From a virus, in the IMG/VR virus record IMGVR_UViG_3300032282_004590, positions 1-39,336 of that record: DNA of 39,336 bases. The stretch is one strand, 5' to 3'. The position numbers were made by a program, and so were the translations under genes. Under the pieces are notes generated by a model. That model was not told where the DNA came from, did no database searches, and saw only the letters and a list, made by a program, of their open reading frames with translations. Below, one piece after another: positions 5,729-39,336 of this stretch. Position 1 is the stretch's first letter. Every line of letters starts with the position of its first letter.

Positions 5729-5735
5729 GTTTGTT

Positions 5736-5741
5736 TCTCCT
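5736..5741 (-). promoter_or_regulatory. Strong ribosome-binding site of the possible decoration gene
   Basis: The minus strand reads AGGAGA seven bases before the ATG at 5728. Most genes in this genome start at overlaps with little or no Shine-Dalgarno, so this site marks high translation and fixes the start. Confidence 0.85.
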
Positions 5742-5776
5742 GTGAAGGTTGAGGGGAGAGTTTGGTTGGCTCCGGG

Positions 5777-6790
5777 TTAGCTGCCCGGGGCGAACTTGAT
5801 GAGCTTCCGCGGGTTCTTGACCACGAGGGCACCGGTGGCGGTGACCAGGAACTTCTCGCTGCGGCCGGACTTGGCCAGCGGGATCATGTTCGGGGCGTCG
5901 GCCCAGCGGATCTCGAGGTTGTCGAGCGGGCAACCGACCGCGAGGCGCTTGGAGGCGGCCGAGGTGGGATCGCCGCTGGCGTTGATGTGCTGGGAGAGCT
6001 GCACTTCGACGTCGCCGAACGACGTGTCGAGGACGTCGACCTTGCCGAGCACCACGCGCGGACCAACGTTGGCCTCGAAGTGCCGCACGATCGTGCGGTT
6101 GCTCTCGGTCTTGTTGGAGTACGTGATGCGGTCGAGGTTGCGCTTCCACCGGCTGCCGGCGAAGATCACGTTTTCCTCGGTCTCGTCGCCGGTCTCGTCG
6201 AACTGGCTCTGCACGATCGCCGTGATGGTGTCGTCCACGTAGTCGGCCATCGCCGTCGACGCATCGATCGAGGTCGAGGGCGTGAGGTAGTCGGTCGGAA
6301 CCGCGTAGTGCGTCTGCGCGGTCGATTGCGCCCACTTCACGAGGCCGCGGGTTTCGTTGCCGACCACGCCATTGTCGACCTGGCTCTCGTTGTCGGAGAG
6401 CATGACCACCTCGCAGTCGCGCTTGAGCTCAATGAGCTTCTTGGCGACCTTCTTGGCGACCACGTTCTTGGGCGTGATGCCGGCCTGGTGGGTGACGGTG
6501 GTGGCGAGACCGCCGATGCGGACCGCGCGCTCCCAGACGTGCACGCGCACATCGAGCTCGTTGTCGCCTTCGGACGGGTTTTCGAACTGCTCCGGATCCG
6601 CCTCATCGACGGCGCCGGTGACCACGGGATCGTCGTATTTCTCGACGGCGTAGGTCATTTTCGCGTTCATCGGGGCCTTGCCCTTGCTGACGCGGGACAT
6701 GAATGGGAACTTGAACGCTTTCGCGTTATCGAACTCGGTGGCGAGGTCTTGGACCTTCGCCACGCTATCTCTTTCAACCAATGTGGACAT
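5777..6790 (-). CDS. Major capsid protein, SU10/DUF5309 type
   Basis: 337 aa, ATG at 6790 with a strong AGGAGA site 9 nt upstream. The pattern fits the DUF5309 (SU10-like) HK97-fold major capsid family. The N-terminus is short. Then come KMTYAVEKYDDPVV, a segment of alternating residues (VHVWERAVRIGGLATTVTHQAG), the conserved helix KKLIELKRDCEVVMLS near residue 120, a glycine turn (GNETRGL), the middle domain ENVIFAGSRWKRNL, and a C-terminal ADAPNMIPLAKSGRSEKFLV segment that matches the usual 'LAKTGD-x-E+' ending. It polymerises into the icosahedral shell on the scaffold encoded immediately upstream. Confidence 0.88.
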   Translation of the reverse strand: MSTLVERDSVAKVQDLATEFDNAKAFKFPFMSRVSKGKAPMNAKMTYAVEKYDDPVVTGAVDEADPEQFENPSEGDNELDVRVHVWERAVRIGGLATTVTHQAGITPKNVVAKKVAKKLIELKRDCEVVMLSDNESQVDNGVVGNETRGLVKWAQSTAQTHYAVPTDYLTPSTSIDASTAMADYVDDTITAIVQSQFDETGDETEENVIFAGSRWKRNLDRITYSNKTESNRTIVRHFEANVGPRVVLGKVDVLDTSFGDVEVQLSQHINASGDPTSAASKRLAVGCPLDNLEIRWADAPNMIPLAKSGRSEKFLVTATGALVVKNPRKLIKFAPGS

Positions 6791-6799
6791 GGTGGGAAA

Positions 6800-6805
6800 T
6801 CTCCT
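6800..6805 (-). promoter_or_regulatory. Strong ribosome-binding site of the major capsid gene
   Basis: AGGAGA on the minus strand, nine bases before the ATG at 6790. It is the same hexamer as at the possible decoration gene, and clearly stronger than the signals at most other starts here. Confidence 0.85.
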
Positions 6806-6814
6806 GGGGAGCGG

Positions 6815-8017: not shown

Positions 8018-8165
8018 AGGTTGGGCCTAAGTGAGCCCAATGCCTTGAACACCAGCGGAGCCGGTCAATAATGCCCCGATAGCAAAACCCGAGTTGGCCC
8101 GACTTGGCCCAACTTTACCGTAGGTTTCACGCCGCCGGTGGCGGCGTTTGTTCCACGTTATTCCG
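8018..8165 (-). other. Intergenic spacer with several stem-loops before the scaffold-capsid genes
   Basis: This is one of the longest gene-free stretches of the window. A perfect 8-bp stem with 3-nt loop lies at 8129-8147 (ACGCCGCC/GGCGGCGT). A second imperfect stem at about 8092-8114 contains GTTGGGCC/GGCCAAC. A third lies close to the scaffold start (TTGGGC/GCCCAA, about 8023-8042). A TTGACC hexamer on the minus strand (about 8061-8066) is a weak -35 candidate, but no good -10 follows. It may be a late-promoter or mRNA-processing region. Confidence 0.45.
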
Positions 8166-8486
8166 CTATCCGCTGCGCGTGGATTTCTCCGGTGACCGTT
8201 TAGTGCGTGAACCGTTGAGCTCGCGCGCCTGCTTGATGCAGTTGGCGATTTCGTGCTGCAGGCTGGCAATCTCAGCCAGGCGGCCCCCGGCGTGGCCCGC
8301 GGACCGTTCCGTGAGCTCCGGCTGCGCGGCTTCGACGGTGGCCCGGGCAAGGCGTTCGCCGAGGATCTGGCGAAACGCCTGGGCCATCTTCGGGTTGGCG
8401 TCCAAGACGGTGCCAATGGCCTGCGAAAGCTCCTCGCGCGTCAGCGGCGTTTCGGCCGCGGGGTAATAGACAACGATCGACTCCAT
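8166..8486 (-). CDS. Small helical protein between portal and scaffold
   Basis: 106 aa, ATG at 8486, three bases after the portal stop. It is mostly helical (LTREELSQAIGTVLDANPKMAQAFRQILGERLARATVEAA, then ASLQHEIANCIKQARELNG) with a basic tail. There is no membrane segment or catalytic motif. Its position suggests a head-assembly accessory protein, but no family was recognised. Confidence 0.7.
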   Translation of the reverse strand: MESIVVYYPAAETPLTREELSQAIGTVLDANPKMAQAFRQILGERLARATVEAAQPELTERSAGHAGGRLAEIASLQHEIANCIKQARELNGSRTKRSPEKSTRSG

Positions 8487-8489
8487 AAA

Positions 8490-10661: not shown

Positions 10662-10668
10662 TTGCTGT

Positions 10669-10863
10669 TCAACTGGACGTTCCCCGGAGGTCGTCAAGAA
10701 CACGTTTGATCTCGGCGCGCATGTAGCGCGCGCGCTTGTAGGCGGCCGGGTAATAGCGACGGATCCGGCCATCGGCCTCGAGGGTTTCGAGTTGGCGGCG
10801 GCTCCCCACGGCGGAAATCACGTCCTGCCGGGTGAGGTAAATCTTGGCGGGCAATGCGGTCAT
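10669..10863 (-). CDS. Small winged-helix/MerR-like protein between terminase and portal
   Basis: 64 aa from the ATG at 10863 (MTALPAKIYLTRQDVISAVGS). The sequence TRQDVISAVGSRRQLETLEADGRIRRYY fits a short DNA-binding helix-turn-helix of the excisionase/MerR kind, followed by a basic helix (KRARYMRAEIKRVLDDLR). Sixteen bases separate it from the terminase stop. No separate small terminase was found elsewhere, so a role in DNA recognition during packaging is possible, although it is very short for that. A regulatory role is equally open. Confidence 0.6.
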   Translation of the reverse strand: MTALPAKIYLTRQDVISAVGSRRQLETLEADGRIRRYYPAAYKRARYMRAEIKRVLDDLRGTSS

Positions 10864-10879
10864 GGTGGGCGGGGTTGGA

Positions 10880-12658: not shown

Positions 12659-12724
12659 TCTTGTGTCAGTGGGCACCAAGTTGGCAACGGGCGGGCGTCG
12701 GGAGGGCGGAATCTCTCGTTCGTT

Positions 12725-12749
12725 CCGGGTTAACCGGGTTAACCGGGTT
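12725..12749. repeat. Tandem 9-bp repeat at a gene end
   Basis: The unit CCGGGTTAA occurs about 2.8 times in a row, starting at 12725, 12734 and 12743. The TAA stop of the 83-aa gene (12739-12741) lies inside it. The unit is three codons long, so gain or loss keeps the phase. The repeat lies in the gap just before terL, a region where a packaging-site signal could occur. That function is not shown. Confidence 0.8.
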
Positions 12750-12990
12750 GCTCGGCCGTGAGGCGGGCGACCATCTCCTCGGTGCTCGCGTTGAACTGGG
12801 TGTTGAGCAGTTCAAGCACGGGTCTGATCTGTTCCTGTGTGAAGGCGTTGCGCCCGTCCGGGGTCAGCAGCGCCACGGTCTTGCCGTCGCATCGAAGCGC
12901 GGCGCGGTAGGTCGAGTAGGTCCAGCGCGGAACAGGCTGCGCGAGGCAGCCTTGTGTGATCGGAATTTCGGACATGGGCGGTGATTTCAT
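12739..12990 (-). CDS. Small protein of unknown function
   Basis: 83 aa from the ATG at 12990; a second in-frame ATG at 12975 is also possible. The start is preceded by the motif GAACGAAACGCCC, which is also found before another gene in this cluster. The protein has a short beta-rich part (VPRWTYSTYRAALRCDGKTVALLTPDGRN) and a helical end (FTQEQIRPVLELLNTQFNASTEEMVARLT). No domain was recognised. Its stop codon lies in a tandem repeat. Confidence 0.65.
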   Translation of the reverse strand: MKSPPMSEIPITQGCLAQPVPRWTYSTYRAALRCDGKTVALLTPDGRNAFTQEQIRPVLELLNTQFNASTEEMVARLTAEQPG

Positions 12991-13009
12991 GGGCGTTTCG
13001 TTCGCTGGG

Positions 13010-13363
13010 TCAGGCGAAGCCTTGGTTGCTATCGATGCAGACCCACTGGCCGGCATATTTGCCGCTGGCGTGTCGTTGGAAGGTCTCGCCGTGAAGCGGG
13101 CCGTCTTTCTGGATGCGCCAGTCGTGGTCTGGATCGGCGGCGGCGAGCTTCTCGGCATCGGCCACGGTCCATACGGGGCCGTCTTGCGTCTCCTCGTAGA
13201 TGAGTTCTTTGCCCTTGGTGAGCACGGCGGACCCAAAGCCGACCGCGATCAGCATGTCGGGGTGCGCGATTCTGCACGCGGTCGAGCAGCACGCGCACCC
13301 GATGAAGAGTTGCTTGTCTTCCAGCGGCTTCACCTGTGCCCAGTTGGCGGTTTGAGTAGTCAT
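13010..13363 (-). CDS. Cysteine-rich conserved phage protein
   Basis: 117 aa from the ATG at 13363. The N-terminal third carries FIGCACCSTACRIAHPDM, a C-x-C-C-x3-C-x3-H cluster that may bind a metal. The second half has WTVADAEKLAAADPDHDWRI and PLHGETFQRH, a pattern I recall from many small phage proteins of unknown function. It is soluble and has no enzymatic motif. It is part of the 12.7-14.2 kb run of small genes with similar intercistronic sequences. A perfect stem-loop (13383-13397) precedes its start. Confidence 0.7.
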   Translation of the reverse strand: MTTQTANWAQVKPLEDKQLFIGCACCSTACRIAHPDMLIAVGFGSAVLTKGKELIYEETQDGPVWTVADAEKLAAADPDHDWRIQKDGPLHGETFQRHASGKYAGQWVCIDSNQGFA

Positions 13364-13397
13364 AAAATTGTGCCGGTCTTTCCCGGCTGTCAGCCGG

Positions 13398-13646
13398 TTA
13401 GGCAGATGCTGTTTTCTGGCTGCCGTACAGCGGGACGTGCTTCGCAGCTTCGAGCACGTCGTCCAGATGCAGCACCTCCTTGAGGTTGGGCATCGGGTCG
13501 TTCGGGCTGGTGGGCGCGATCTTGCCGTTGCAGTGGTCGTTGCCGGCCACGGCGTCGTAGAGGATGCCGACGACCGGCGCTCCGTATTGCGGGACAAGGA
13601 GAACCTTGTCCCCGTTCTTGGCTTCTCTGCCGTTTTTGTAGTGCAT
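13398..13646 (-). CDS. Small protein of unknown function (NGREAKNGDKV type)
   Basis: 82 aa, ATG at 13646. It begins MHYKNGREAKNGDKVLLVPQ, a beta-barrel-like opening seen in many small phage proteins (a Gly-Asp turn then a hydrophobic strand). It continues with an acidic helical end (LKEVLHLDDVLEAAKHV). An intercistronic hairpin with 6-bp arms (13657-13673) lies just upstream of the start. The function is unknown. Confidence 0.65.
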   Translation of the reverse strand: MHYKNGREAKNGDKVLLVPQYGAPVVGILYDAVAGNDHCNGKIAPTSPNDPMPNLKEVLHLDDVLEAAKHVPLYGSQKTASA

Positions 13647-13689
13647 TTTTGGTAGGCCGGGCGGGATGCCCGGAAGGTCTTTCGTTCGG

Positions 13690-13926
13690 TCAGGGCCGGT
13701 GCCACTTGCGGGCGAGGCTGTATTCCTCGGTGATCGTACCGTCCGGGTAGCACTCCCGCCACGCGATCACGCAGAACACGGCCATTTGACCGCCGCTGAA
13801 CGTGCGAAGTGTGGACGGTGTTACCTCGCCGTCGTACCGAACGACAAAGCAGGGCTCGTCCTTGTAGGGCTTCGGCGGGGCGGATAGCCCGACGCGGCGA
13901 AATAGGGCTGTGAACAGGTTGGGCAT
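13690..13926 (-). CDS. Small protein of unknown function
   Basis: 78 aa, ATG at 13926 with a good ribosome site (AAAGGAA at 13932-13938, spacing 5). It starts with a short amphipathic or hydrophobic stretch (MPNLFTALFRRVGL), then has a beta-rich core (CFVVRYDGEVTPSTLRTFSGGQMAVFCVIAW) and a basic end. Its stop codon lies in the repeated intercistronic sequence CCCTGACCGAACGAAAG. No family was recognised. Confidence 0.65.
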   Translation of the reverse strand: MPNLFTALFRRVGLSAPPKPYKDEPCFVVRYDGEVTPSTLRTFSGGQMAVFCVIAWRECYPDGTITEEYSLARKWHRP

Positions 13927-23607: not shown

Positions 23608-24828
23608 CTATCCGGCGACCTGCAGAGGCGTGTAGGGCATTTTCGCGCCCATGTAATAGCGATCGGTGGTCCGCTGCGTGGAATGTCTGGCAAACTCCTT
23701 TGCCGCGCCGGCGCCGTGGGCCAGATAGATTTGGGTAATCGCGTGGCCGCGGGCCCTGTATGCCAGCTTGCCATTGATCCGCTCGACTCCACACGTCGCG
23801 ATGTACGCGTTTATGCGGCGGTAGCAGGTCTGCCAGCGGTCATGCTCGGAAAGTCCCTCAACGATGAAAGCCGACGCCTTGGGCGCGGTCTCGCTTGAGC
23901 GGATCAGCTTTGGCAGGTTCGGATCGATCTCAACCCAGCCGTCCCGCCCTTTGGGCTCAAACGTGCCATTGGTGCTAAGGTCAATGAAGGTGCGGCCGTC
24001 GACCGTACCGATCCAACCCCACCGCGCCTCGAGGATCTCGCAGTTTCTCAGGCCGGCGTGCAGCATGAGCATGATGGCGGCGTAGGTGGCCGGCTCCTGT
24101 TCTTTCAGCTTCGGAAGGCCGGCGTGAATCGCCTCGATCTCCTTGGGACTGAAAACCTGCGGCGGCGGCGCCGGCCGGGCATCCAGGCCGAGCTCCGTGG
24201 CGAACGCGCGCGCGGTGTCGGGGATCCTGAGTCCCGAGTCCTGGAGATACTGCACGGCCCGCCTCGAGAATACCGATTGCGCGTTGGCGAGGATCTGGTT
24301 CCGGCTCCGCTTGCGGCGTTCAAACTCCTCCTTCTGCTTTGGCAGGAACTGCAGCGCGGCCGCCCGCTTCTGCTCCTCGAGCCATTGGCGCGCCAGCTTG
24401 GAGTCGATCACGTCGATACTCAACGCGCGCACGTCGGCGGTCGGGTTCATGTCCTTCACGATTTGAGTGAGCGAGGCCACGTTGCGGTGGCGGGTGCGCT
24501 CCTTGCCGTGCTCCCACGCCTCATATTTGTCAAAAACTTCGCCCAATTTCTGCCCATCTTTCCCCGGGTTGGTGCTGACCATCGGCGCCAATGTGGTCTG
24601 GATCCCGGCCAGGAAACGCTGCACCACCGGCTGAGCGCGCACGATCGCGGTCCGGAGATCCGTGGTCCGCATCGACTCCTTGAGGGTGAAATCCCGCTTG
24701 GTGATCGGGTGCCTGGCAGACTTGCGGATCCAGTAGGTTCCACGCTTCCCGCTGGGGCGCAGACCGAGAAAATCGGCCCACTGCACCAATCTCTGCTGGG
24801 AAGCGCCTAGCACCTCGGATTCCGTCAT
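23608..24828 (-). CDS. int: Tyrosine site-specific recombinase (integrase)
   Basis: 406 aa from the ATG at 24828. An upstream in-frame start at 24888 adds a hydrophobic run that is unlikely. It has an arm-binding N-terminal part, a core-binding domain (VFDKYEAWEHGKERTRHRNVASLTQIVKDM, about 99-130) and a catalytic domain. Active-site candidates are Arg261 (MLHAGLRNCEILEARW), Lys293 (FEPKGRDGW), Arg360 (YRARGH), His382 (FARHSTQRTTD) and Tyr391 or Tyr392 (DRYYMG). In the usual H-x-x-R box the first His appears replaced by Tyr (YRAR). It catalyses recombination between attP, which lies about 100 bp upstream of its start, and a host tRNA-Asn gene. Confidence 0.9.
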   Translation of the reverse strand: MTESEVLGASQQRLVQWADFLGLRPSGKRGTYWIRKSARHPITKRDFTLKESMRTTDLRTAIVRAQPVVQRFLAGIQTTLAPMVSTNPGKDGQKLGEVFDKYEAWEHGKERTRHRNVASLTQIVKDMNPTADVRALSIDVIDSKLARQWLEEQKRAAALQFLPKQKEEFERRKRSRNQILANAQSVFSRRAVQYLQDSGLRIPDTARAFATELGLDARPAPPPQVFSPKEIEAIHAGLPKLKEQEPATYAAIMLMLHAGLRNCEILEARWGWIGTVDGRTFIDLSTNGTFEPKGRDGWVEIDPNLPKLIRSSETAPKASAFIVEGLSEHDRWQTCYRRINAYIATCGVERINGKLAYRARGHAITQIYLAHGAGAAKEFARHSTQRTTDRYYMGAKMPYTPLQVAG

Positions 24829-24929
24829 GCCCCCTACTTGGGCAGAAGTTGGGCAGACGACCAGCCAAAAAACGCCAAAAAACGCCAAACTCTAAAACCC
24901 GCCCTACCCCTGTTTTACCTCTGAAAGAA

Positions 24930-25053: not shown

Positions 25054-28000
25054 CTAGGGATGTTCGAAGGCTTTTGACACGTCGCCCACGGCGCGGCCCT
25101 GGGCTTTCCAGGTCGACGGCTTGGCGTCTTGCATCATTTCGTAGTTCGGCTGCCACACCTTGCTGTGCCAATAGCTCAGTTCCGCGAGACGCCCGGCCTG
25201 CACCGGCGTGCGGTTCTCTTTCTGGATCGCGTTGAGCCGATAGTATTCGCCGAGGAGCCGGTTCACGTTATCGGGCATCGCCAGCCGGATCTTGGCGTTT
25301 CGGGTGTCGAGCGTTGCCTCGAGAGTGCGCTGGCGCTCGCGCAGGCCGGCGTCCGTGATCTTTATGGCGCGCGAGATCACCGGAGCGCCACCAATGAGGT
25401 GCTCCTGCCAGGTTTTCGCATTGGGATCGATTCGGACGAAGTTGCCCCCGCCCACTTGGTCCCACGTGTAACCGATCATGCCTCTGAGCGCGGCCCAGCT
25501 GCCGGCTTGGAACTGCGTCGACGAGAGCACCGGGTTGCCGCGCAGCTTGTCCCGCGGATTCACTCCATCGGCGTAATCCTTCCAGCTCGAGGCCAGCGTA
25601 AACACCGGGTTGATGCCTGGCGCCATTCCGCCGGAGAAGTTCACCAGATTGGAGAGTGATGCCTTGGCGGCCGGATCGTCGCCCGTGGCGGCGGCCTGCA
25701 CAAGGTAGTGCACCACGCCACCGAGGAGCTTTGCGGTTTCGTCTTCTGGGATCCGGATGCCGGCCGACTTGTAGCCGAAATCGCTGCTGCCGTCGTGCAC
25801 CGTGCCCATCGGCATAATCAGATAGTTGGCTTTATCGTAGTCGCTCCAGGCATCATAGTATTTCTTGAGCCCGGCCCCGAGCACTCCGGCGGCCGCAAGA
25901 GCCTGGAGCAGGCGCGGCGCCAAGGTGCGCTCGGCCATGCGGCGCCAATAGGAAAACTTCTGCGCACGTGGATCGATCGGCACACCTGGGATCTTCCCGC
26001 GGGCCTGCTGCACGTCCGCCTCGAGGCCGCGCATGAAAATGTTGATGAAGGGAAACACCGTCCCATCCCAGACCGTCCACTTGCCGCGCTTGGTGAAGTT
26101 GGGCGTTCCGACGTGATTGCGCACGAAATAGGCCGCCTGCTGGGGCGTCCAACCAAGTTCCCGAGTGAGCACCCGATAGGCGCCCATCTTGGGCATGGCT
26201 TCCGCGGTTTGGCCGGCAAACTCGATCTTATCAAGCGCAGCACCCAGGCCCGGAACTTGGCCGACCCATTTGCGGAGCGCCGCGCCGTGCTCGGGCGATC
26301 CAGGCGTGAGCCGATAATCTGCGAGCATCTTGCCCCAAACGTCGTCTTGCATCGGATTCGATGCGAACGACTCAAACGGCGTGGTGACGCCGCGCTGCAC
26401 AAGGATCTCGATGGCCAGGGCGCGGTCGTCGAGCAGGCGCCGCTCGGCGGTCTCCTCCGGAGTCAGCTTGCGCCGTTGCGCCAAGGACCGCAGCTGCCGG
26501 CGGCGCTGCAGTTCGGCCCCCTCGAGATCGTTCAGTAACCTCGCCCGGGCCCCGCGGTGCGCGCGCAGCTGCTCGCCAATCCAGTGCCGGCGCTTCACAC
26601 CATCCGGCAGCTTCACGTAGGACCGGGAAAGATCGCGGATCGGATTGGCCCAGAGCTGGAAGGCGGGATTGTAGGTGATGAAAGCCGGATAGAAAATGTT
26701 CCGGAAAGCCCAATTGGTGACACCGATGATCGCGTGGGCCGATGCCGGGTCCGAGCGGTCGAACATGTCGGAGATCTCCGGGTCGACGTGCCATGAAACC
26801 GGCCGGCCCTTGTCCATCACGATCAACTCCCGCTTGCCTGGCAGCGGTGCCTTGGCGCGAAACATGAGCTTGCCGTTGGCCAGTGGGATCTTGGAGACAG
26901 GCGCCAAATCAATTTCGTCGGGGAAATGGCGCGTGAGCAGTTGCACCGTCACCCGCTTGGCCTGGTTGAGCTCGGCAAACTTGTTTGCCGTCAGCATCTT
27001 GATGGCCGTGGCGAGGAACGGATTGGCCACCTCGCGCAGCGTGCCGCGCTGTTGCTTGAACGCCGCCGGGATATGGGGGGACTGCTCGAGGAAATCGACG
27101 ACCGCAAACGTTGCATATTTGTACCGATTCACCCGCGCGAGGGCCAACTGAGAATCGGAATAGATTCCGGACGCATGACCGCGCTCGATCACCTCGAGCG
27201 CGAGATCCTGGAAGCGCCGTGCGGCCTGTTCCATCGCCTCGAATTGGGCCGGGCCCATCCGATAGCGCATCACCAGCAGTTCACGCCGGGCGGTCAGTGG
27301 CGTGTGGCCCATCGGATTCGCAATGGTGCCGCGCCCGGCCATTTGATCACCCACCAGGTAGCTCTCGTGCGCAATGCGATTGAAAAATAGGAAGTCTCCC
27401 AGCGTGGCATCGTCGATGCCCAAGTCCTCGAGGGGAGAGAGCACCGTTTTCTGTACCCGATCGAGGAAACGATAATTGGCGTTTTCCGAGAACGGATGAG
27501 CGTCGAACACAAATTCAGGATCCTGCCACCACGGCAGATTGGCGCCGGCGGCGCGCGCCTGGCGGGCCCGCTCGATGATCGGGGCGTAGATGTTAAAATG
27601 CTTCTGCTTGAACCGCTCGAGGATCACGCGCAGCGAGTTGCGCCGGGCATCGCGTTCGGCAGCCTTGGCCAGCAGGATCTCCTCGGCCCTGGCAAAGCCG
27701 GTGCGCACGTTGCCAAGCCGCTCGGCGCTGACGGCTTTCGCGCCTTGGTGCAGTAAATCCCACGTGCCGATCAGCTCGTTTTTCACCTCGGGTTTTCGGT
27801 CGAGGTAGTTGAAGAACATTTGCCACGCAGTCGGGGCGCGCTCGCGAAACTCGGCCGGCGCGTTGAAAAGGACGCTCAGCGCGTCGGCATAGATTTCCAC
27901 CGAGCTGTCCCGGTAGTTCATATATCCCGGGTTATCAGGGGCCGCGATGGGGCGCCACCAAAACGAAAGGTTCTTGAGTTCCGTGCCCACGTCTCCCGCG

Positions 28001-31000
28001 CCTACCACATCAGCACCGCCCTCAACCTTGCGGCCGCGGGATACCACCAGGCCGCGGGCCTCGAGCGCGTTCTGGAGCAGCTCCGAATAAACCTTACGCA
28101 CCTCCTGCTGCCATGCAGCCAGATCCGCCTCCTCATCCTTTTCCGGCCGTGCGCCCACCTGTTTTTCCGCCTGGCGGCGCAGTTGCTGGCGCTCCTTGGG
28201 CGTCAGCGTCGAGTGCGGGCTGTTGGGATCGATCGGCAAACTTTGGGCGAGGTACTCGCGCAAGGTGGCGAGTCGGCCCAAAAGGTTTCCCCGCTTGAGC
28301 GTGCGATCCGGAAGATAATCGATCAGGTGCCCGATCTCGTGCGCCAGCGTTTGATTTGCCATCGCAAAATCGGTGAAGATCCGACGATCCAGCACGATCA
28401 TGCCACGGCCGGCCGCCCGCATGAATCCGCGGGAGCGCGGCAGATTCCGCAGCTTGGGGATCTCGCCGGCCAGCTGCTTCACGAGATCCACGAGCTCGGG
28501 CATTTCCACCGGTCGCACAAGGTGCATTTGCGCGAGCGGCTGAGGCACCGGCGTCTTGTCAAACGACGTGACGTAGTGCGTCGGAGCCGGCGGGGTTTCC
28601 GCAGGCAATTGCCCTTCTTCCGCGACCCTAGTAGCACGAGCACGCTGCGATCCATAGATCGTGTCAAGGTGCGGCGCTTCGTTCACCCAGCGTAAAGCTT
28701 TTCCGACGCCATTCGTGAGGATCAAATCGTTGATCACCCCTCGGGCTTGGAGCGCACGCGCGACGTCGCCTACTGCCTGATTGCCGTCGTAGTATCCGAT
28801 CAAATAAACCGCCCCAACACCTCGAGCCAATTCATGCAGGTGTTTCGGAAAGTCGGGATGCGCCAAATCGGTCGCGTTGACTGAACCGGTGCCCACGATC
28901 ATTGAGCGATTGCCAAAAAAGAATACCGTGAGGTTGCGCTCGGCGACTTGTAGTTCGTATCCGATTCGCACCGGATCATCACCCTTGAGTATTTCTCGGC
29001 CCAAATATGGACTCGATCCTTGGACTGCTAGAGTTGGATCCCACTTGTTCTCGTAGCCAGGGAGAACCTGCCCCATAAATGGATCTCCGGTGGGGTAGAT
29101 CACAGTGTAGGAGCCGTGATTTATGACGTAATGCCGCTTGAAGTCCTTGGGGAATTTCTCAGCTATCGCTCTCGTAAACATTAGGTCCGCTCGGCTCGGA
29201 TCTGGTCGGCCGCTCGGGTGATTATGGAGGACATCAAAGGTCGTCCATTTGACGGCCGCGCGGTGTTCCTGAAACCGCTTTTCCCAATCAGCGCCCAAGT
29301 CGACGGCGTTCGGCAGCCGCGAGCTCAGCGCCATCGGCGTCAGGAGTCGGCCATCGCGGTCATAAGGCAGGATCCAGAACGTCTCGACGTTGCGATTTCG
29401 CAGCACTTGGGCGGCGCTGATCAATTGCGCTTCGCTCTTAAACTTCCGGCCGGTGTGCGCAAGAAATCCATCGGCCAAAAAAGCCTGCGTGTAGAGGCGG
29501 GACTCGAGCTGAATGCCGCCAGGCTGCGGACCTACGTTGGCGTTGGGTAGCGGCGCGACGGATCGACCCACCCCGAGCAGTTCGGTTTGCCCGATTTGTC
29601 CACGTGGTAGGTTGTGCGTGAACTGTCCGGATTGATTACCTCGATCCGTGTCCCCGGCAGGAGGGGCGTCGAATGCTTTTGCCAATGCTGCATCTGTTGC
29701 GAGGTCCAACTCAAGCTGCCGGGCGAGCTTTCGCTCCCAGACTCCGGCGATGATACCTCGGACGGCTGAACGGGTGACCGGATTTGTGACGCTTCGGGCA
29801 TTGAGGTAGCTTTTGACGGTCCGCTCAAAGAGGGAGAACTGGCCCTCATTATCAGTGGTCGGGCCAAAAAGGTCAACCTGTGTTGCGAGATCAGCCGCTT
29901 TGATCGGGGCGGCGGCGCGGCGCTGCATTTCCGCCTTTCTGAGCGTTTCCTCATCACCCAGGGACGTAGGCCGACCTGATTTCTCGGTGCTGTAAAAATC
30001 GAGGAAGTCTTGCCCCAACCCTTTTTCCACGTCGTCAAGCTCGGCTTGGCCGGCGGCCGTCAACTTTCCCTCTTTCTCGAGCGCGCGCAGCTGCAGGTAG
30101 CGCGTGTGCGCGGCAGCATACTCGTTGGTTTCTTCGAACATTGCTCCTTGGTTGGGATCTTCCGGCGGGACGGCCGGCGGCTCCGGCGCGGGCTCGTCGG
30201 CCACCGGCAGGCCGGCGGCTCGGCGCAGTTCATTGAACGTGGCGGCGTCGGGCGCTTGGTAACGCTCGATTTCGCCCTGCAGTTGATCGATGCGCGCCTG
30301 GAGGGCGGCGGGATCATCGACTGGCAGACCCATCTTGCGGGCGGCCTCGGGCCGGCGGGCGGCGCCCTGGGCGGCCAGCACCAGATCGCGCTTTTGGCTG
30401 ATCAGGTCTGCCTGGACCTTGGAAATGGCGGCCGCTTCGCGCTCGAAATCCGCAAACGAAGTGTCGACCCCAGCAAATCCCAGCTGATCACCACTGCCGG
30501 CCTTTGATGTCAGCTGGCCGAGGTTTCGCACATAGAGCTCGAGCTCGGCAGCGCTCTTGGTTTTGGCCGCACGGATGCCGCTATCCTGCGCCGGCACGTT
30601 GCCTGGCGCTCCCCGGGCAATGGCTACTGCTTTGCCTTCGGGGATTTGGTCGTTGGCGTAGAGGGAAAAAAGACCATCGGTGGCATCTTTTCCAAGGTGC
30701 CAGCCGGAATTTGCCTTAACGCCTCGTAGTAAGCCTCGCGATTGGGCCGCTTCTTTGGTGTAGGTTGGGTTGATCCGGAAGTAGTGGGCATAGTCTTTGA
30801 TTTCTCCTTGGCCGTCACGGATGTTGCTCTCTGCGTCAAAAGTAAGGGCCATCGCCTTCGTGAATCCATCCGATTCTTTCACCACCTGGGCGGGGATGGT
30901 TTTCTCCCCGGTGCGGCGCGCGAGGTCGAGGCGGTGCCGGCCGGTGATCACTTCCTTTTCGCCATTGGCTTTCTCCCAGACGACGATCGGGGCGGTGCCG

Positions 31001-32247
31001 AGTCTTTGGTAGGAACCCTGCAGCGGTTCCACCACGCCGGTTTTGGTGTCCCCGGATCCCTTGAATTGCGGAACGTCCTTATTGACCACGATGCCGTTGA
31101 TCTCGAGATCGCGCACGGGATGGAGTTGCGGCTCAATAATGGTCGTCGGCTCAGGCGGCGCTTCCGGCGCTTCCGCCTGCTTGGCGAGCGCGACCAGCTG
31201 CTCATCGGGCACCTCAGTGATCGGCGGCGCCGCGGCCGCGGGCGGAACGGGATCCGGATTTGCCGGCTCGGTTTGGTTGCTGGCGGCGGGCGGCGCTTCG
31301 GGAGCCGGCACCCGCGGCGGCAGTCCGGCCCGCTGAGAAAACTCTTGCTCGGCGCTCTGCGCCGGGACAATCGGCGCTTCGGGTGCGGCCGCGTCTGGCG
31401 TCGTTGCAACGGGCTGCTCGGCCGCGGGCGTGACGTTCTTCGGTTCCGGCTTTTCCGACGCGATCTTGTTGCGGACCGCATCGACGAGCTCGGCATCGGT
31501 TCCCTTGAACCCCTTGAACTCAGGCGTCGCACGCACCTGTTTGAGGACGGCCCGGCGAAGGGCCATGCTTTCGGCGGTGCCAGCCGCGGCACCGAAGATG
31601 AATCCCAAGGCGCCGGTCGTCGCCAGCCGGCCGAGATTGACGTCCTTCTCGTCGACCAACTGACCCAAAAGCTCGGCGGCGGTCGAGATTCCAGCTCCTT
31701 GAACACCGCGGCGAACCACATTGGCGGCCATCTTGGCTGTCTGCGGTCCCATTGGAACAGCACCGGCACCAATCGCGCCCAGCAAACGGCCCTCGCCGAC
31801 TTGATCACGCTCGCCACGGAAATACTGACGGGCCTGCACCAAACCTTCGCCAAGACCGGATCCGGCTGCGCCGCCGGCCGACAATCCGACCAAAGCGCCA
31901 GGACCGCTGGGCGCGGTCACGGCACCGCCCAGGATTGATCCTCCGACCGCGGGGATGATCCCGGCGGCCACATCGCCAACGGCCCCGCCTTGGGTCAAAA
32001 GCGCTTTTACAATCGCGCTTCCGCCGGGGACTGCTGGCGCCATGACATCCGAAATCGCCTCGGCGATCGGGGCCCGGGCCTTCTGTTTGGTTTCAACGGC
32101 GAGTTTCGTGGCTTCTTCGTCGCCCAGGTAACCCTGCTGCGCGGCCACGCCGAGCAGCTGATCGTCGGACAATTCATCGACTGCAGGAAAGCCGGCGGCC
32201 AGGAGCGACAGTTCCCGGTCGCTCAGTTCTGAAATTGGCTTCGGCAT
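25054..32247 (-). CDS. Very large polyvalent protein (ParB-like, JAB/RadC-like, HExxH and LPD38-like modules), likely ejected with DNA
   Basis: 2,397 aa, ATG at 32247, one base after the stop of the upstream gene. The N-terminus is helical. A glycine-rich hydrophobic region (about 75-230, GGSILGGAVTAPSGPGALVGLSAGGAAGSGLG) could cross a membrane. A ParB/sulfiredoxin-like nuclease module lies near 370-560 (NGEKEVITGRHRLDLARRTG). A JAB/RadC-like metalloprotease fold lies near 920-1060 with HNHPSGRPDPSRADL (about 1008). A zinc-metallopeptidase HExxH (LAHEIGHLIDYLPDRT) is near 1300. The C-terminal 550 residues begin near ANPIRDLSRSY and match large polyvalent-associated domains of the LPD38 type. 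Such phage proteins are packaged and injected and may counter defences. This gene closes the ejection-protein block. Confidence 0.85.
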   Translation of the reverse strand: MPKPISELSDRELSLLAAGFPAVDELSDDQLLGVAAQQGYLGDEEATKLAVETKQKARAPIAEAISDVMAPAVPGGSAIVKALLTQGGAVGDVAAGIIPAVGGSILGGAVTAPSGPGALVGLSAGGAAGSGLGEGLVQARQYFRGERDQVGEGRLLGAIGAGAVPMGPQTAKMAANVVRRGVQGAGISTAAELLGQLVDEKDVNLGRLATTGALGFIFGAAAGTAESMALRRAVLKQVRATPEFKGFKGTDAELVDAVRNKIASEKPEPKNVTPAAEQPVATTPDAAAPEAPIVPAQSAEQEFSQRAGLPPRVPAPEAPPAASNQTEPANPDPVPPAAAAPPITEVPDEQLVALAKQAEAPEAPPEPTTIIEPQLHPVRDLEINGIVVNKDVPQFKGSGDTKTGVVEPLQGSYQRLGTAPIVVWEKANGEKEVITGRHRLDLARRTGEKTIPAQVVKESDGFTKAMALTFDAESNIRDGQGEIKDYAHYFRINPTYTKEAAQSRGLLRGVKANSGWHLGKDATDGLFSLYANDQIPEGKAVAIARGAPGNVPAQDSGIRAAKTKSAAELELYVRNLGQLTSKAGSGDQLGFAGVDTSFADFEREAAAISKVQADLISQKRDLVLAAQGAARRPEAARKMGLPVDDPAALQARIDQLQGEIERYQAPDAATFNELRRAAGLPVADEPAPEPPAVPPEDPNQGAMFEETNEYAAAHTRYLQLRALEKEGKLTAAGQAELDDVEKGLGQDFLDFYSTEKSGRPTSLGDEETLRKAEMQRRAAAPIKAADLATQVDLFGPTTDNEGQFSLFERTVKSYLNARSVTNPVTRSAVRGIIAGVWERKLARQLELDLATDAALAKAFDAPPAGDTDRGNQSGQFTHNLPRGQIGQTELLGVGRSVAPLPNANVGPQPGGIQLESRLYTQAFLADGFLAHTGRKFKSEAQLISAAQVLRNRNVETFWILPYDRDGRLLTPMALSSRLPNAVDLGADWEKRFQEHRAAVKWTTFDVLHNHPSGRPDPSRADLMFTRAIAEKFPKDFKRHYVINHGSYTVIYPTGDPFMGQVLPGYENKWDPTLAVQGSSPYLGREILKGDDPVRIGYELQVAERNLTVFFFGNRSMIVGTGSVNATDLAHPDFPKHLHELARGVGAVYLIGYYDGNQAVGDVARALQARGVINDLILTNGVGKALRWVNEAPHLDTIYGSQRARATRVAEEGQLPAETPPAPTHYVTSFDKTPVPQPLAQMHLVRPVEMPELVDLVKQLAGEIPKLRNLPRSRGFMRAAGRGMIVLDRRIFTDFAMANQTLAHEIGHLIDYLPDRTLKRGNLLGRLATLREYLAQSLPIDPNSPHSTLTPKERQQLRRQAEKQVGARPEKDEEADLAAWQQEVRKVYSELLQNALEARGLVVSRGRKVEGGADVVGAGDVGTELKNLSFWWRPIAAPDNPGYMNYRDSSVEIYADALSVLFNAPAEFRERAPTAWQMFFNYLDRKPEVKNELIGTWDLLHQGAKAVSAERLGNVRTGFARAEEILLAKAAERDARRNSLRVILERFKQKHFNIYAPIIERARQARAAGANLPWWQDPEFVFDAHPFSENANYRFLDRVQKTVLSPLEDLGIDDATLGDFLFFNRIAHESYLVGDQMAGRGTIANPMGHTPLTARRELLVMRYRMGPAQFEAMEQAARRFQDLALEVIERGHASGIYSDSQLALARVNRYKYATFAVVDFLEQSPHIPAAFKQQRGTLREVANPFLATAIKMLTANKFAELNQAKRVTVQLLTRHFPDEIDLAPVSKIPLANGKLMFRAKAPLPGKRELIVMDKGRPVSWHVDPEISDMFDRSDPASAHAIIGVTNWAFRNIFYPAFITYNPAFQLWANPIRDLSRSYVKLPDGVKRRHWIGEQLRAHRGARARLLNDLEGAELQRRRQLRSLAQRRKLTPEETAERRLLDDRALAIEILVQRGVTTPFESFASNPMQDDVWGKMLADYRLTPGSPEHGAALRKWVGQVPGLGAALDKIEFAGQTAEAMPKMGAYRVLTRELGWTPQQAAYFVRNHVGTPNFTKRGKWTVWDGTVFPFINIFMRGLEADVQQARGKIPGVPIDPRAQKFSYWRRMAERTLAPRLLQALAAAGVLGAGLKKYYDAWSDYDKANYLIMPMGTVHDGSSDFGYKSAGIRIPEDETAKLLGGVVHYLVQAAATGDDPAAKASLSNLVNFSGGMAPGINPVFTLASSWKDYADGVNPRDKLRGNPVLSSTQFQAGSWAALRGMIGYTWDQVGGGNFVRIDPNAKTWQEHLIGGAPVISRAIKITDAGLRERQRTLEATLDTRNAKIRLAMPDNVNRLLGEYYRLNAIQKENRTPVQAGRLAELSYWHSKVWQPNYEMMQDAKPSTWKAQGRAVGDVSKAFEHP

Positions 32248-32248
32248 G

Positions 32249-33439
32249 TTATTTGACGAGCCCGCGGCGTTTCAGTTCTTCGGCGATTTCTTGCGTGGTG
32301 TAGGGCGAAGCCGGTTTGCCCGCCGGCGCCGCGATAGCTGCAGAAGGCTCCACCGCCGGCGCCGGCTGAATTGCAGGCATCCACGGTGACACCGCTTGCG
32401 CTGCCGGGGTGGTCGATTTGCCCGACTTGGCAGCACTGTCCGCTTGCCCTTCCATGTCAGCAAACGGCGGCTTGAAACCCAATTGGCCGGCCAAGTAGTT
32501 CGCCTGATTGCGCACCGCCTGGGTGCGCTGCTTGGCTTCCTCAGCCGATTCTCCGAATCCCGCTTTCGCATCCGGGGTGCCTTCCTGAACTAGCGATTGG
32601 TAGCGCGTGTAGAGCGCCTGCGCGGCCCAGGGATCCAGAGGTTTCACCGTGTCGGCTTTGATCGGCTTTCCGTCACCGTCAAGAATGTCGCTTCCGACCT
32701 TGTAGAGCGTGCTGCCGCCGATCTGGAACGGCACGGCGGTGGGCTGCTCGGATTTGGGCGGCTCCAAATAACGGACGTTTCCTTGGGCGTCGACCAGCCC
32801 CTGCACCGGCCGGCCCGAGGCATCGGTTCCGAAATTGGTCAGACCTTGCGGAACGCGATTTGCGAGGCCCTTGGTTTGAGTCTGCGCCAGATCTCCCAGC
32901 TGCGCGAGCACCTGCGGGGACATGCCCCCCTTCCCCACGTAGGCGCCAATTGCGCCCGCGTAGTTGGGTCCGCGGACTGGATCCGGCAGCGACTTTCCAG
33001 CATCGAGATTGGCGCGGATTGTCGAATAATCGGGGAGCTCCACACGGTTCGGATCGAGGAACGGGGCGGCACTCTGGAGCGCGGCCGCATTGGTGGCCGC
33101 ATCATCGAGTTCCTTCTGGGAGATCCGGCGCTTGAGCTGCTCGTTTTCCACCTGGAGCGCGCGCAATGGTGCTTCGCGTTGGGCCTGTTCGATTTGACCC
33201 GCGAGTGCGATCACCTGGGGAATCGCCTCCTTGGGCGTGTCCTTGTCCAACTGGACACCCAAGCCCGGCGCCATCTTGTTGATCAGCGGGTTGAGCGTTT
33301 CGACGGCTTTGGCCATCTGCTCCTTCTGCTTCCGTTCCTGGGCGCGTTGAATAATGCCATCAGCAAGGCCGGAAATGCCTTGATTGATGCCTTCCAAAAG
33401 CGGCCGCGAATCGTAGGAGATACCAGGTGCGTAGGGCAT
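32249..33439 (-). CDS. Ejection/internal virion protein candidate
   Basis: 396 aa, ATG at 33439, three bases after the upstream stop. It is predicted mostly helical with long coiled-coil-like stretches (IIQRAQERKQKEQMAKAVETLNPL, LQVENEQLKRRISQKELDDAATNAAAL). The C-terminal 70 residues are Pro/Ala/Ser-rich and disordered, ending in a short helix (TTQEIAEELKRRGLVK). It lies between the hendecad-repeat protein and the 2,397-aa protein, the usual place of podoviral ejection proteins. No domain was recognised. Confidence 0.7.
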   Translation of the reverse strand: MPYAPGISYDSRPLLEGINQGISGLADGIIQRAQERKQKEQMAKAVETLNPLINKMAPGLGVQLDKDTPKEAIPQVIALAGQIEQAQREAPLRALQVENEQLKRRISQKELDDAATNAAALQSAAPFLDPNRVELPDYSTIRANLDAGKSLPDPVRGPNYAGAIGAYVGKGGMSPQVLAQLGDLAQTQTKGLANRVPQGLTNFGTDASGRPVQGLVDAQGNVRYLEPPKSEQPTAVPFQIGGSTLYKVGSDILDGDGKPIKADTVKPLDPWAAQALYTRYQSLVQEGTPDAKAGFGESAEEAKQRTQAVRNQANYLAGQLGFKPPFADMEGQADSAAKSGKSTTPAAQAVSPWMPAIQPAPAVEPSAAIAAPAGKPASPYTTQEIAEELKRRGLVK

Positions 33440-33442
33440 GGT

Positions 33443-35029
33443 TCAGGCGATTTGAGGGTTGAGTGCGAGCACGGCGTCAAAGAGCGCTTTGATCTCCGAC
33501 CTGTAGGCGGAATCAACTCGAGCACGGGCGGCGGCTTTCCGGCCATTGACGGCATAGGCCGCGAGCAAGTGCGCGGGCGCCTTTGCCAGCATCCATTTGC
33601 GCACGGCCAACCACCGGGAATCATCGCGGCCATAGACCGCACGCGCGAGCCAGCAGAACATGCCAGCTGCAATGCCCGCACCGCCGAGTTTGCCCGCGGT
33701 GCCGATGAGTCCACCCAGCAGCGCGGTGTTGTTGTTGGCATTGGCAATGCCCGCGGCCGCCGAACCGTTGTAATTCGTGTTGTAGAGATCGGACGCGTAG
33801 GCGTTGTAAGGATCAAACATGCCGCGGGTGGTGGCCGCGCTGGCGCCGGCGGTTCCAGTGGCATTGCCGAACAGATTCGCATTGCTGCCTGCGTTCGAGG
33901 ACGAGCGGCCGAGCACGCCCTGGAACGGATCCGAAAACGTGGAGAGGCGCGCCTGGGTGGCCGACAGTTGCCGGCTGAACTCCTCCCCGCGGCGGGCGGC
34001 CTCGAGTTGGGCAGCACGATCGAGGGCGGCGCGGTCGGCATCGGTGCGGGAGGCGTTGAATCCGGCCGCATTGAGGCCCATCTGCGAATTGAACTGCTGC
34101 GAGGCCAAACTGTTGGTCGAGTTGAACTGATCGGCGCCAAGACGGTTTCCCACGTTGAACTGGTCCGCGGCAAGGCGGTTTCCCACGTTGAACTGATCGA
34201 TGCCAGAACGGAACGAATCCTTGGCCAGTCCGTAGGAACGGTCGGCGGCTTGGCCGGACCGAAGCGCGGAATTAACTCCGGTGGCGAAGGTACGGCGGGA
34301 GTCGAGCCGCGCCTGGCGTGCTTGGGCAGTATTGAGCACTTCGTCAGCAAGGGCGGCATTGGAGTAGCCACGGCCGCGGGAGTCGGCGGCCGCGCGCGAC
34401 TGAACGCGCACGAGCCGGGCCTCGTCGGCACTGAGTTGGTCGCCTTGCCCAAGATCAGACAGAGCTTGGGTCTGGAGCGCGGATTCGATCGCGCTGGGCC
34501 CGTCCGGGTTGGTCATGGAGTTACTGACAGCTCCAGGTTGCACGCGGCCGGCGCGAACTCCGGTGAAATTCACATCCCGCGCGGTAAAGCGTGGCGAGCT
34601 TTGCATGGCTGCCGCACCAAATGCGTTTTCAGCCGCGCCGGGCGTGATGCCACCGGCCGCGGCCGCATCGAGCGCATCGAGGTTGCCGAACAGTTCCGGA
34701 TTTGCTGCGCGTTGGGCGGCCGTAACAGCGCCGCTCATGCTCTGGACGTCCGCAATGTCCGCTTTGCGCTGCGCCGTGTTCGCCTCCTGGGATTGGGTGG
34801 CCGCCTCGTCGGTCAGGCGCCGATTGATGTCCGACAGATTTCCGGTGAAGTCCGGGCCAAAAAGCGACTGGCCGAGCACCGAGACGTCGGTGGCGGCGTA
34901 GCCCGGCGCCGTCGCCTGGTAGGCGGCGAGCTGCTCCGGCGCCAATCTGATTTGGGTTGCAAGCGTGTCCTGCGTCTCTTGGGCGAGATTACGCGGAGCA
35001 GGAGCGTCGACGTGGGTATTAAAGCACAT
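33443..35029 (-). CDS. Ejection/tail-associated protein with 11-residue repeats
   Basis: 528 aa, ATG at 35029. The centre carries five 11-residue units in a row (DQFNVGNRLAA, DQFNVGNRLGA, DQFNSTNSLAS, QQFNSQMGLNA, AGFNASRTDA). The DNA repeats too: a 20-bp sequence occurs at 34143-34162 and 34176-34195. Such hendecads form right-handed coiled coils. A Gly/Ala-rich hydrophobic stretch (LLGGLIGTAGKLGGAGIAAGM) is followed by the C-terminal motif CWLARAVYGRDDSRWLAVRKWMLAKAPAHLLAAYAVNG, a pattern I recall from the ends of many phage tail or ejection proteins. It probably forms part of the DNA-ejection channel. Confidence 0.7.
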   Translation of the reverse strand: MCFNTHVDAPAPRNLAQETQDTLATQIRLAPEQLAAYQATAPGYAATDVSVLGQSLFGPDFTGNLSDINRRLTDEAATQSQEANTAQRKADIADVQSMSGAVTAAQRAANPELFGNLDALDAAAAGGITPGAAENAFGAAAMQSSPRFTARDVNFTGVRAGRVQPGAVSNSMTNPDGPSAIESALQTQALSDLGQGDQLSADEARLVRVQSRAAADSRGRGYSNAALADEVLNTAQARQARLDSRRTFATGVNSALRSGQAADRSYGLAKDSFRSGIDQFNVGNRLAADQFNVGNRLGADQFNSTNSLASQQFNSQMGLNAAGFNASRTDADRAALDRAAQLEAARRGEEFSRQLSATQARLSTFSDPFQGVLGRSSSNAGSNANLFGNATGTAGASAATTRGMFDPYNAYASDLYNTNYNGSAAAGIANANNNTALLGGLIGTAGKLGGAGIAAGMFCWLARAVYGRDDSRWLAVRKWMLAKAPAHLLAAYAVNGRKAAARARVDSAYRSEIKALFDAVLALNPQIA

Positions 35030-38802: not shown

Positions 38803-39336
38803 GGTGCTTTTTGGTGATGGTGGTTAGCGATCATCAGGACGACCGAGGCGACGACGGCTAGGACTGCCGCGGTGATGCCGCCCCAGAAGATGAAAGGATG
38901 GTCCTCAATCAGGCGCTCGACGGCGCGGACGATGATCCCGGTCAGGATCAGGGCCATGCCGGCGGCGCCGAGCCAGATGGCTACCTGCGGACCGAAGATC
39001 GGCACCTGGGCCCGGAGGAACAGCACGGCGGCGGCGCCGAGGATCAGCAGGGCGCCGACACCGAAGAAAATGGCGGTGATCAGAAGGCGCTCCTTGGCTT
39101 CGGCCTCCTTGCGGGCTTGGCTACGGGCCTCGTCGAGTTGGCGTTTGAGCTCGGCGGCGGCGGCCGTGCGCTCGGCGGCCACCTGCTCCTCGAGGGCCTT
39201 CACTCGATCGGCAAGGGCGGCGGCATCGGTCCGGGCCTTGGCCCATCCCTGCTGGGCCTCGTCGAGCCGGCCGGTGAGGGCAGCATTGACCCGAGCGAGG
39301 GCTTCCGCGCGGTCGGCGTCGGCCGGCGCCGGCAGG
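38799..39336 (-). CDS. Membrane protein, C-terminal part of the join-spanning gene
   Basis: The frame is open from the right edge, with its start at 365 in the left end of the window. It encodes an Ala/Glu-rich coiled coil (KALEEQVAAERTAAAAELKRQLDEARSQARKEAEAKE) and then three hydrophobic helices (LLITAIFFGVGALLILGAAAVLFL, VAIWLGAAGMALILTGIIVRAV, IFWGGITAAVLAVVASVVLMIAN). The stop (TGA, 38801-38799) overlaps the next ATG. The assembled 259-aa product has an N-terminal hydrophobic segment, a long exposed coiled coil and a membrane tail. A GTG at 39203 is an alternative internal start giving 134 aa. Confidence 0.85.
   Translation of the reverse strand, partial: LPAPADADRAEALARVNAALTGRLDEAQQGWAKARTDAAALADRVKALEEQVAAERTAAAAELKRQLDEARSQARKEAEAKERLLITAIFFGVGALLILGAAAVLFLRAQVPIFGPQVAIWLGAAGMALILTGIIVRAVERLIEDHPFIFWGGITAAVLAVVASVVLMIANHHHQKAP
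39214..39336. repeat. Terminal direct repeat, right copy (circle overlap)
   Basis: Identical to bases 1-123. Joining base 39213 to base 1 gives a continuous reading frame, so this is best read as the overlap of a circular assembly. Confidence 0.95.

What the first reader, a model, noticed from the sequence alone, without database searches (positions are those of the whole stretch)
25054..32247. A 2,397-residue polyvalent ejected protein with several enzyme-like modules
One gene makes up 18 percent of the genome and combines a hydrophobic glycine-rich region, a ParB-like nuclease pattern, a JAB/RadC-like HNHPSG motif, an HExxH metallopeptidase motif and an LPD38-like end. In podovirus-like phages such proteins enter the host with the DNA. 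The order of modules suggests stepwise action: membrane passage, DNA or defence targeting, then proteolysis.
Basis: partly seen in the sequence, partly recalled or inferred. Interest (0 to 1): 0.7.

Follow-up and report, generated by a model that had tools for sequence, protein, structure and literature searches.

The report
Phage's giant cysteine-free injected protein

Summary
One 2,397-residue ORF (minus strand, 18.3% of a terminally repeated 39.3-kb phage genome) carries a ParB-like unit, a RadC/JAB domain, a zincin-type HExxH domain and a long helical LPD38-like C-terminus. Predicted folds support three modules: RadC (Z 14.2), zincin (best match lethal factor, Z 8.7) and ParB/Noc. Pfam thresholds are met only for RadC; LPD38 and ParB_N stay below.

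It is a new variant of a known kind, the polyvalent proteins of Iyer et al. 2017. Three things go beyond that paper. (1) RadC, said there to occur only in conjugative-element polyvalent proteins, lies in large viral-contig ORFs in 80 of 80 loci examined, with LPD38 in 7 of 18 scanned. (2) Modules shuffle but keep the order ParB, RadC, zincin (19 of 19). (3) The protein has no cysteine; 164 non-redundant relatives have 119 in 424,328 residues (0.28 per thousand, controls about 8.6). Cysteine absence was known for N4 virion RNA polymerase and fits threading unfolded through a short tail. Presence in the virion, activities and self-cleavage are untested.

The parts
25054..32247 (-). giant polyvalent protein gene, 2,397 aa, 0 cysteines
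31903..32019 (-). Gly/Ala-rich hydrophobic stretch, residues 77-115 (possible membrane insertion)
   Evidence: hydropathy 1.68 at residues 93-111; function inferred
30184..31128 (-). ParB-like unit, residues 374-688; GRHR box 436-439, N475, R477
28708..29541 (-). RadC/JAB unit with extension, residues 903-1180; E955, H1008, H1010, D1021
27778..28530 (-). zincin-type metallopeptidase domain, residues 1240-1490
28327..28341 (-). HExxH motif, residues 1303-1307
25861..27672 (-). long mostly helical C-terminal body, residues 1526-2129
   Evidence: model; relatives; fold neighbours
25447..25860 (-). LPD38-like region, residues 2130-2267
   Evidence: Pfam E 0.0067, below gathering score
32249..33439 (-). 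upstream gene, 396 aa, 0 Cys; candidate small ejection protein (by position only)
   Evidence: no informative family hit
33443..35029 (-). upstream gene, 528 aa, 2 Cys; candidate ejection protein (by position only)
   Evidence: no family hit
23608..24888 (-). integrase-like gene directly downstream; integrase matches also in five relatives with related giants
5777..6790 (-). major capsid protein, SU10_MCP family
   Evidence: Pfam PF17236 E 1.2e-25

Best explanation
This is a phage-type polyvalent ejection protein. Inferred course: the chain is packed in the head, leaves through a short tail largely unfolded, and refolds in the host. It has no cysteine, so no stray disulfides can form in the oxidising periplasm. 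Inferred roles: the N-terminal Gly/Ala stretch contacts the inner membrane; the C-terminal half (zincin plus long helical LPD38-like body) is a common carrier; the middle holds exchangeable cargo, here a ParB/Noc-type CTP-switched DNA clamp for the incoming DNA and a RadC-type JAB metal site. The zincin may cut the cargo free. Shown: the ORF, the modules, their predicted folds, conserved metal-site and box residues, constant order, cysteine exclusion, and the ejection-gene neighbourhood in relatives. Not shown: presence in virions, injection, CTP use, RadC substrate, self-cleavage.
For: Colinear homologues over both halves. The giant lies within three genes downstream of ejection or internal-virion genes in Vibrio 1.211 and Baldr. 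A podovirus LPD38 giant is in virions: JC1 gp69, 51 unique peptides (PMC9144972 passages). Folds: RadC 2qlc_A Z 14.2, 2.4 A over 122; Noc 7nfu_B Z 11.0, 3.7 A over 193 of 213; zincin 1pwv_A Z 8.7, 3.7 A over 136, rows outside the lethal factor/certhrax group at 5.9 or less. Conserved sites: E955, H1008, H1010, D1021 in 81 of 81; GRHR and N475 in 81 of 81; E1451 in 38 of 38. Cysteine: window 0 in 2,397, about 26 expected; 164 non-redundant giants 0.28 per thousand; T7 gp15 and gp16, P22 gp7, gp20 and gp16, N4 gp50-52 all 0; podovirus DarB-like BcepIL02 gp70 0 in 4,667 against P1 DarB 9 in 2,255. SU10-type capsid gene in the window and in 4 of 6 relatives' records.
Against: No virion data for this phage and no known host. 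ParB_N and LPD38 miss Pfam cut-offs (only 3 of 29 members of A4 reach E 0.01 for LPD38). No excess of palindromic sites for a ParB to load on. Five of 41 non-ejected proteins (virion or scaffold) also lack cysteine, and T7 gp14 and gp6.7 have one each, so absence of cysteine is not exclusive to ejection. HExxH and HNHPSG conservation is partly built in by the search patterns.
Confidence: 0.8

Rival explanations
1. It is made after infection and acts only in the cytoplasm as a takeover or counter-defence protein, without being packaged.
For: All modules are of cytoplasmic type (ParB, RadC); no virion data exist for this phage; window neighbours 32249-33439 and 33443-35029 have no ejection-protein family hit.
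Against: A cytoplasmic protein has no reason to avoid cysteine (0 of 2,397); relatives sit beside ejection genes; JC1 gp69 is in virions.
Confidence: 0.1
2. It is an ordinary structural or assembly protein of head or tail; lack of cysteine only reflects general avoidance in virion proteins.
For: Some non-ejected virion and scaffold proteins also lack cysteine: T7 and P22 scaffold, P22 gp26, N4 capsid and gp57.
Against: Intact JAB and zincin metal-site residues; other large virion proteins keep cysteine (N4 gp65 11 in 1,382; T7 gp12 5 in 794).
Confidence: 0.07
3. Same ejected protein, but the ParB unit is an NTP-regulated DNase, as the reader and Iyer et al. propose for DdrB-like ParB.
For: Iyer et al. 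argue this for DdrB-like ParB (PMC5512222 passages); sulfiredoxin also appears in the fold list.
Against: The match covers the ParB/Noc N-domain and DNA-binding domain; GRHR lies on the GERR box of Noc in the profile alignment, at a weak E of 0.041; the unit profile does not match P1 DdrB and the window shows no Pfam ddrB-ParB hit.
Confidence: 0.3

Closest known systems
Polyvalent proteins of phages (Iyer et al. 2017, PMC5512222)
   Same: Single giant polypeptide with zincin MPTase, ParB-superfamily and LPD-type C-terminus, phage-encoded
   Different: Carries RadC, listed there only for conjugative elements; ParB is not the DdrB-like family by profile; cysteine exclusion was not searched for by me in that paper
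N4 virion RNA polymerase gp50
   Same: Giant, cysteine-free, hydrophobic N-terminal part, cargo enzyme, then HExxH and a long helical C-terminal body; top PDB fold hit of the window's C-terminal half
   Different: Cargo is an RNA polymerase. Homology of the C-terminal bodies is only suggestive: Foldseek E 0.072, VIA Z 5.8, profile P-value 0.0097 against decoys 0.27-0.46
DarB-like giant of Bcep22-like podoviruses (JC1 gp69, BcepIL02 gp70)
   Same: Podovirus giant at the end of the morphogenesis module, LPD38 C-terminus (JC1), virion-associated (JC1), 0 Cys (BcepIL02)
   Different: Cargo is lytic transglycosylase, methylase and helicase; no RadC found in the JC1 paper (find)
Vibrio phage 1.183.O gp15 / Pelagibacter phage Baldr gp20
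   Same: 1.183.O shares the N-terminal and ParB part (31.6% over 89-694); Baldr shares the zincin and C-terminal part (21.5% over 1252-2267)
   Different: By blastp each shares only one half; the window joins both around a RadC unit

Membership tests
Phage-type polyvalent proteins | several enzyme-like domains in one polypeptide, with MPTase | tested here: met
Phage-type polyvalent proteins | delivery with the DNA (virion presence) | not testable with these tools
   only precedents: PMC9144972; gene neighbourhood
LPD38 (PF18857) | Pfam gathering score 27 bits | tested here: not met
   17.0 bits; 3 of 29 members of A4 at E 0.01. Called LPD38-like only
LPD38 (PF18857) | fold of the C-terminal body shared with annotated LPD38 proteins | tested here: inconclusive
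   57 BFVD matches at E 0.001 or less, several named LPD38 or large polyvalent protein-associated; which part of the model drives each match was not examined
RadC / JAB (PF04002) | Pfam gathering score | tested here: met
   25.5 and 30.4 bits, cut-off 22.1
RadC / JAB (PF04002) | JAMM residues Glu, HxH, Asp | tested here: met
   E955, H1008, H1010, D1021 in 81 of 81; the two His are within the search pattern
RadC / JAB (PF04002) | RadC fold | tested here: met
   2qlc_A Z 14.2, rmsd 2.4, 122 aligned
ParB/Noc CTP switch proteins | N-domain plus DNA-binding core fold | tested here: met
   7nfu_B Z 11.0, rmsd 3.7, 193 of 213
ParB/Noc CTP switch proteins | Pfam ParB_N gathering score | tested here: not met
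   18.2 to 19.5 bits, cut-off 26.3; so called ParB-like, not filed as ParB
ParB/Noc CTP switch proteins | CTP binding and hydrolysis | not testable with these tools
   only the GRHR box on GERR and conserved N475
DdrB-like ParB (PF18763) | profile match | tested here: not met
   no Pfam hit; unit profile does not find P1 DdrB
Zincin metallopeptidases | HExxH and third ligand | tested here: inconclusive
   HExxH present; E1451 38 of 38 is the candidate ligand by analogy; ligand geometry not examined
Zincin metallopeptidases | fold | tested here: met
   lethal factor 1pwv_A Z 8.7, certhrax 6.9
Podovirus ejection proteins (T7 gp16 / N4 gp50 role) | gene in ejection cassette | tested here: inconclusive
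   true for Vibrio 1.211 and Baldr; the window's own upstream genes have no family hit

The most novel reading that the evidence does not exclude
Short-tailed phages share one evolving carrier, cysteine-free from end to end, whose C-terminal half (zincin plus helical body) is homologous between polyvalent proteins and N4 virion RNA polymerase (where it was reported as a new fold of unknown role). Cargo is swapped in the middle: RNA polymerase in N4, here a CTP-switched ParB clamp plus RadC. Cysteine is purged by selection for unfolded passage and kept only where the chemistry demands it. Cysteine count would then be a sequence-only detector of ejected proteins.
Probability: 0.4. Interest if true: 0.8.

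Novelty: new variant of a known kind. Interest (0 to 1): 0.55.

Why it matters
Ejected proteins are hard to identify from sequence. If cysteine exclusion is general for giants of short-tailed phages, it gives a cheap, testable predictor of which phage proteins travel unfolded into the cell. It also makes the unfolding model of ejection testable by placing cysteines in a laboratory phage protein. RadC inside phage-type proteins removes a stated border between phage and conjugative-element polyvalent proteins, and a ParB/Noc-type clamp delivered with the DNA would be a new way to mark or organise incoming DNA.

Tried and rejected
Whole-protein search of viral contigs found nothing, because exact 8-residue patterns reach only close relatives; two- and three-sequence alignments solved it. 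One joint alignment of ParB and JAB fragments (A5) misaligned them and was discarded for A6. The genome scan found one distant relative only, L229 in a Lentisphaeria assembly contig, so no host is named. Palindrome search for ParB loading sites: 14-, 16- and 18-base palindromes at chance level. Sequence profile of the C-terminus against N4 gp50: no convincing hit (best negative bit scores per domain), so the N4 link rests on fold and profile-profile hints. Profile of the C-terminus against PDB sequences: nothing meaningful, best E 0.41. The NCBIfam hit MXAN_5187 (E 0.0022), which spans the low-complexity N-terminus and is far below its cut-off, was rejected. 'Nuclease' for ParB was considered and ranked second. 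The idea that cysteine avoidance is a general composition effect was tested: cysteine differs from control proteins by log2 -4.85, the next residue (Trp) by -0.69.

Rows dropped before counts: L016 (match lies in a broken frame; left out, not mended) and two ParB ORFs under 800 aa (L223, L227); one search used 36 of the 59 C-terminal loci; A4 used 28 of 59 plus the window; one search used 36 of 59 plus the window and Baldr; A9 used 18 of 80 JAB loci. L006 and L119 are one contig.

Full report
Observation. The ORF 25054-32247 is real, on the minus strand, 2,397 codons. It occupies 18.3% of a 39,336-base record with identical 123-base direct end repeats. The genes given a family here all read on the minus strand. 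Neighbours include a SU10-type major capsid protein, terminase, DnaB-like helicase and DNA methyltransferase, and an integrase-like gene directly downstream.

Modules. Pfam finds RadC above its cut-off (25.5 bits; 30.4 for the piece) and ParB_N below it. LPD38 appears only in a C-terminal piece at E 0.0067, below the cut-off. PHROGs give ParB-like at E 1.7e-5. No Pfam model matches the HExxH region convincingly. AlphaFold2 models were made for residues 371-1240 (mean pLDDT 68.7) and 1240-2397 (77.7, pTM 0.69). Foldseek and VIA-align give RadC 2qlc_A Z 14.2, rmsd 2.4 over 122 residues. The ParB unit matches CTP-binding ParB and Noc structures across both the N-domain and the DNA-binding domain: 7nfu_B Z 11.0, rmsd 3.7 over 193 of 213; 6t1f_B Z 10.5, rmsd 4.3 over 181. 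The HExxH domain matches the lethal factor zincin (Z 8.7, rmsd 3.7 over 136), with certhrax at 6.9 and rows outside this toxin group at 5.9 or less. Iyer et al. reported the same nearest fold for the polyvalent MPTase (PMC5512222 passage). The C-terminal half matches predicted viral proteins annotated as large polyvalent protein-associated domain or LPD38 (57 matches at E 0.001 or less, best 1.1e-31).

Relatives. The two halves have different annotated relatives: 89-694 with Vibrio phage 1.183.O gp15 (31.6%) and 1252-2267 with Pelagibacter phage Baldr gp20 (21.5%). The Vibrio 1.211 homologue lies two genes downstream of a phrog_598 'DNA ejection' gene, and the Baldr protein three genes downstream of a phrog_418 'internal virion protein' gene. 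Module-wise searches of viral contigs gave 59 loci for the C-terminal half, 80 (of 157) for RadC and 80 (of 83) for ParB. Nearly all matches lie in ORFs of 1,000 to 6,500 residues. Profiles on 221 proteins found ParB alone in 75, RadC alone in 70, zincin alone in 57, ParB+RadC in 10, RadC+zincin in 7, ParB+zincin in 1 and all three in 1, the window. The order was ParB, RadC, zincin in all 19 multi-module cases (L006 and L119 are the same contig). Site residues: RadC E955, H1008, H1010, D1021 in 81 of 81; ParB GRHR and N475 in 81 of 81; zincin E1423, E1451 and W1431 in 38 of 38. HExxH and HNHPSG were part of the search patterns, so their conservation is not independent; E955, D1021, E1451 and GRHR were not in the patterns.

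RadC in phage-type proteins. Iyer et al. [quoted passage not shown] Of 18 RadC giants scanned (18 of 80), all 18 match RadC, 7 also LPD38 (best 1.3e-47), 2 ddrB-ParB, 2 InPase and 4 ART-PolyVal. Four of 6 records holding relatives with the window's RadC or zincin carry an SU10-type capsid gene. So the stated border does not hold in viral contigs. I found no paper saying so.

Cysteine. The window protein has 0 cysteines; 29 other window ORFs have 97 in 9,052 residues, so about 26 were expected (some of these ORFs may be spurious; 18 better-supported ones have 58 in 6,938). At the first rate zero has a chance of about 6e-12. Giants of 800 aa or more: C-terminal set 42 in 129,630 (58 ORFs, 35 with none), RadC set 53 in 216,476 (80, 58 with none), ParB set 62 in 196,461 (78, 41 with none). 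After removal of near-copies: 164 giants, 119 in 424,328, 104 with none. Other ORFs of 150 aa or more in 36 loci: 867 in 99,174 (heuristic ORFs). In annotated phages, T7 gp15 and gp16, P22 gp7, gp20 and gp16, and N4 gp50, gp51 and gp52 have none; T7 gp14 and gp6.7 have one each; 41 other proteins of T7, P22, N4 and P1 have 188 in 21,848, with 5 of the 41 also at zero. The head-injected proteins of P1, a contractile-tail phage, keep cysteine: DarB 9 in 2,255, six proteins 13 in 4,359; T4 Alt has 3 in 682. The podovirus DarB-like BcepIL02 gp70 has 0 in 4,667, and two of its three stretches aligned with P1 DarB put V, G and A where DarB has cysteine. Its named counterpart in JC1 is in virions with 51 unique peptides (PMC9144972 passages); JC1 gp69 itself was not counted. 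Cysteines that remain look functional: L051 has a CxxxCxxC cluster like a radical-SAM site (label recalled), and a Pelagibacter-like group has a fixed pair inside a hydrophobic Gly/Ala stretch. That N4 virion RNA polymerase lacks cysteine, and the idea that disulfides would hinder injection, are in print (PMC3915230 and PMC4837373 passages). I found no paper extending this to polyvalent proteins.

N4 link. The top PDB fold hit of the C-terminal half is N4 gp50 (E 0.072). VIA aligns model 309-936 with gp50 2631-3493 at Z 5.8, below the level trusted for helical folds. Profile-profile alignment with 12 N4-type C-termini gives score 37, P 0.0097, pairing window 1935-2131 with gp50 about 3300-3468, consistent in position with the fold match; reversed and unrelated controls score 19-23. 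All 11 N4-type ends fetched have 0 cysteines and an HExxH. The N4 preprint calls this C-terminal domain a new fold with unknown role in early transcription, and suggests that the chain unfolds for ejection (PMC12633501 passages). Homology is suggestive, not shown.

Mechanism and limits. Most likely the chain is packed in the head, extruded unfolded through a short tail and refolded in the cell. The ParB-like clamp then loads on incoming DNA, the RadC site processes an unknown substrate, and the zincin may release the parts. Packaging, ejection and all activities are inferred. No loading-site excess was found, no host is known, and morphology is inferred from head genes and relatives only. The ejection-protein review PMC8954989 (passages) describes T7 gp16 refolding from a partly unfolded state and does not mention cysteine.

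Noticed in passing
L032, L033, L035, L036, L037, L046, L048, L049, L054, L056, L057, L059, L064 and Baldr gp20 (L002:15422-22411): A conserved pair of cysteines, 19-27 residues apart in a Gly/Ala-rich hydrophobic stretch (NDLPWMxxGC...APVVCGAG), in proteins otherwise free of cysteine; possibly a disulfide or membrane hairpin.
   Followed up: partly
L051, giant ORF 5318-13753, residues 689-696: CxxxCxxC cluster like a radical-SAM iron-sulfur site inside an otherwise nearly cysteine-free giant.
   Followed up: no
window 23608-24888; L007, L125, L006, L070, L144: An integrase-like gene lies downstream of the giant in the window, and matches to it lie downstream of the giants in five relatives, yet the genome scan found almost no related prophage.
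   Followed up: partly
L239 (Enterobacter phage SonariX, 248.7-kb record): A 21%-identical relative of the N4 virion RNA polymerase C-terminus, cysteine-free over the 1,412 residues read, in a record far larger than N4.
   Followed up: no
L005:2850-6873 (Nitrosomonas plasmid): The plasmid RadC relative is a separate gene next to a zincin gene; it has 4 cysteines in 368 residues, unlike the phage versions.
   Followed up: partly
window 1-123 and 39214-39336: Identical 123-base direct repeats at the record ends, suggesting a complete genome.
   Followed up: no
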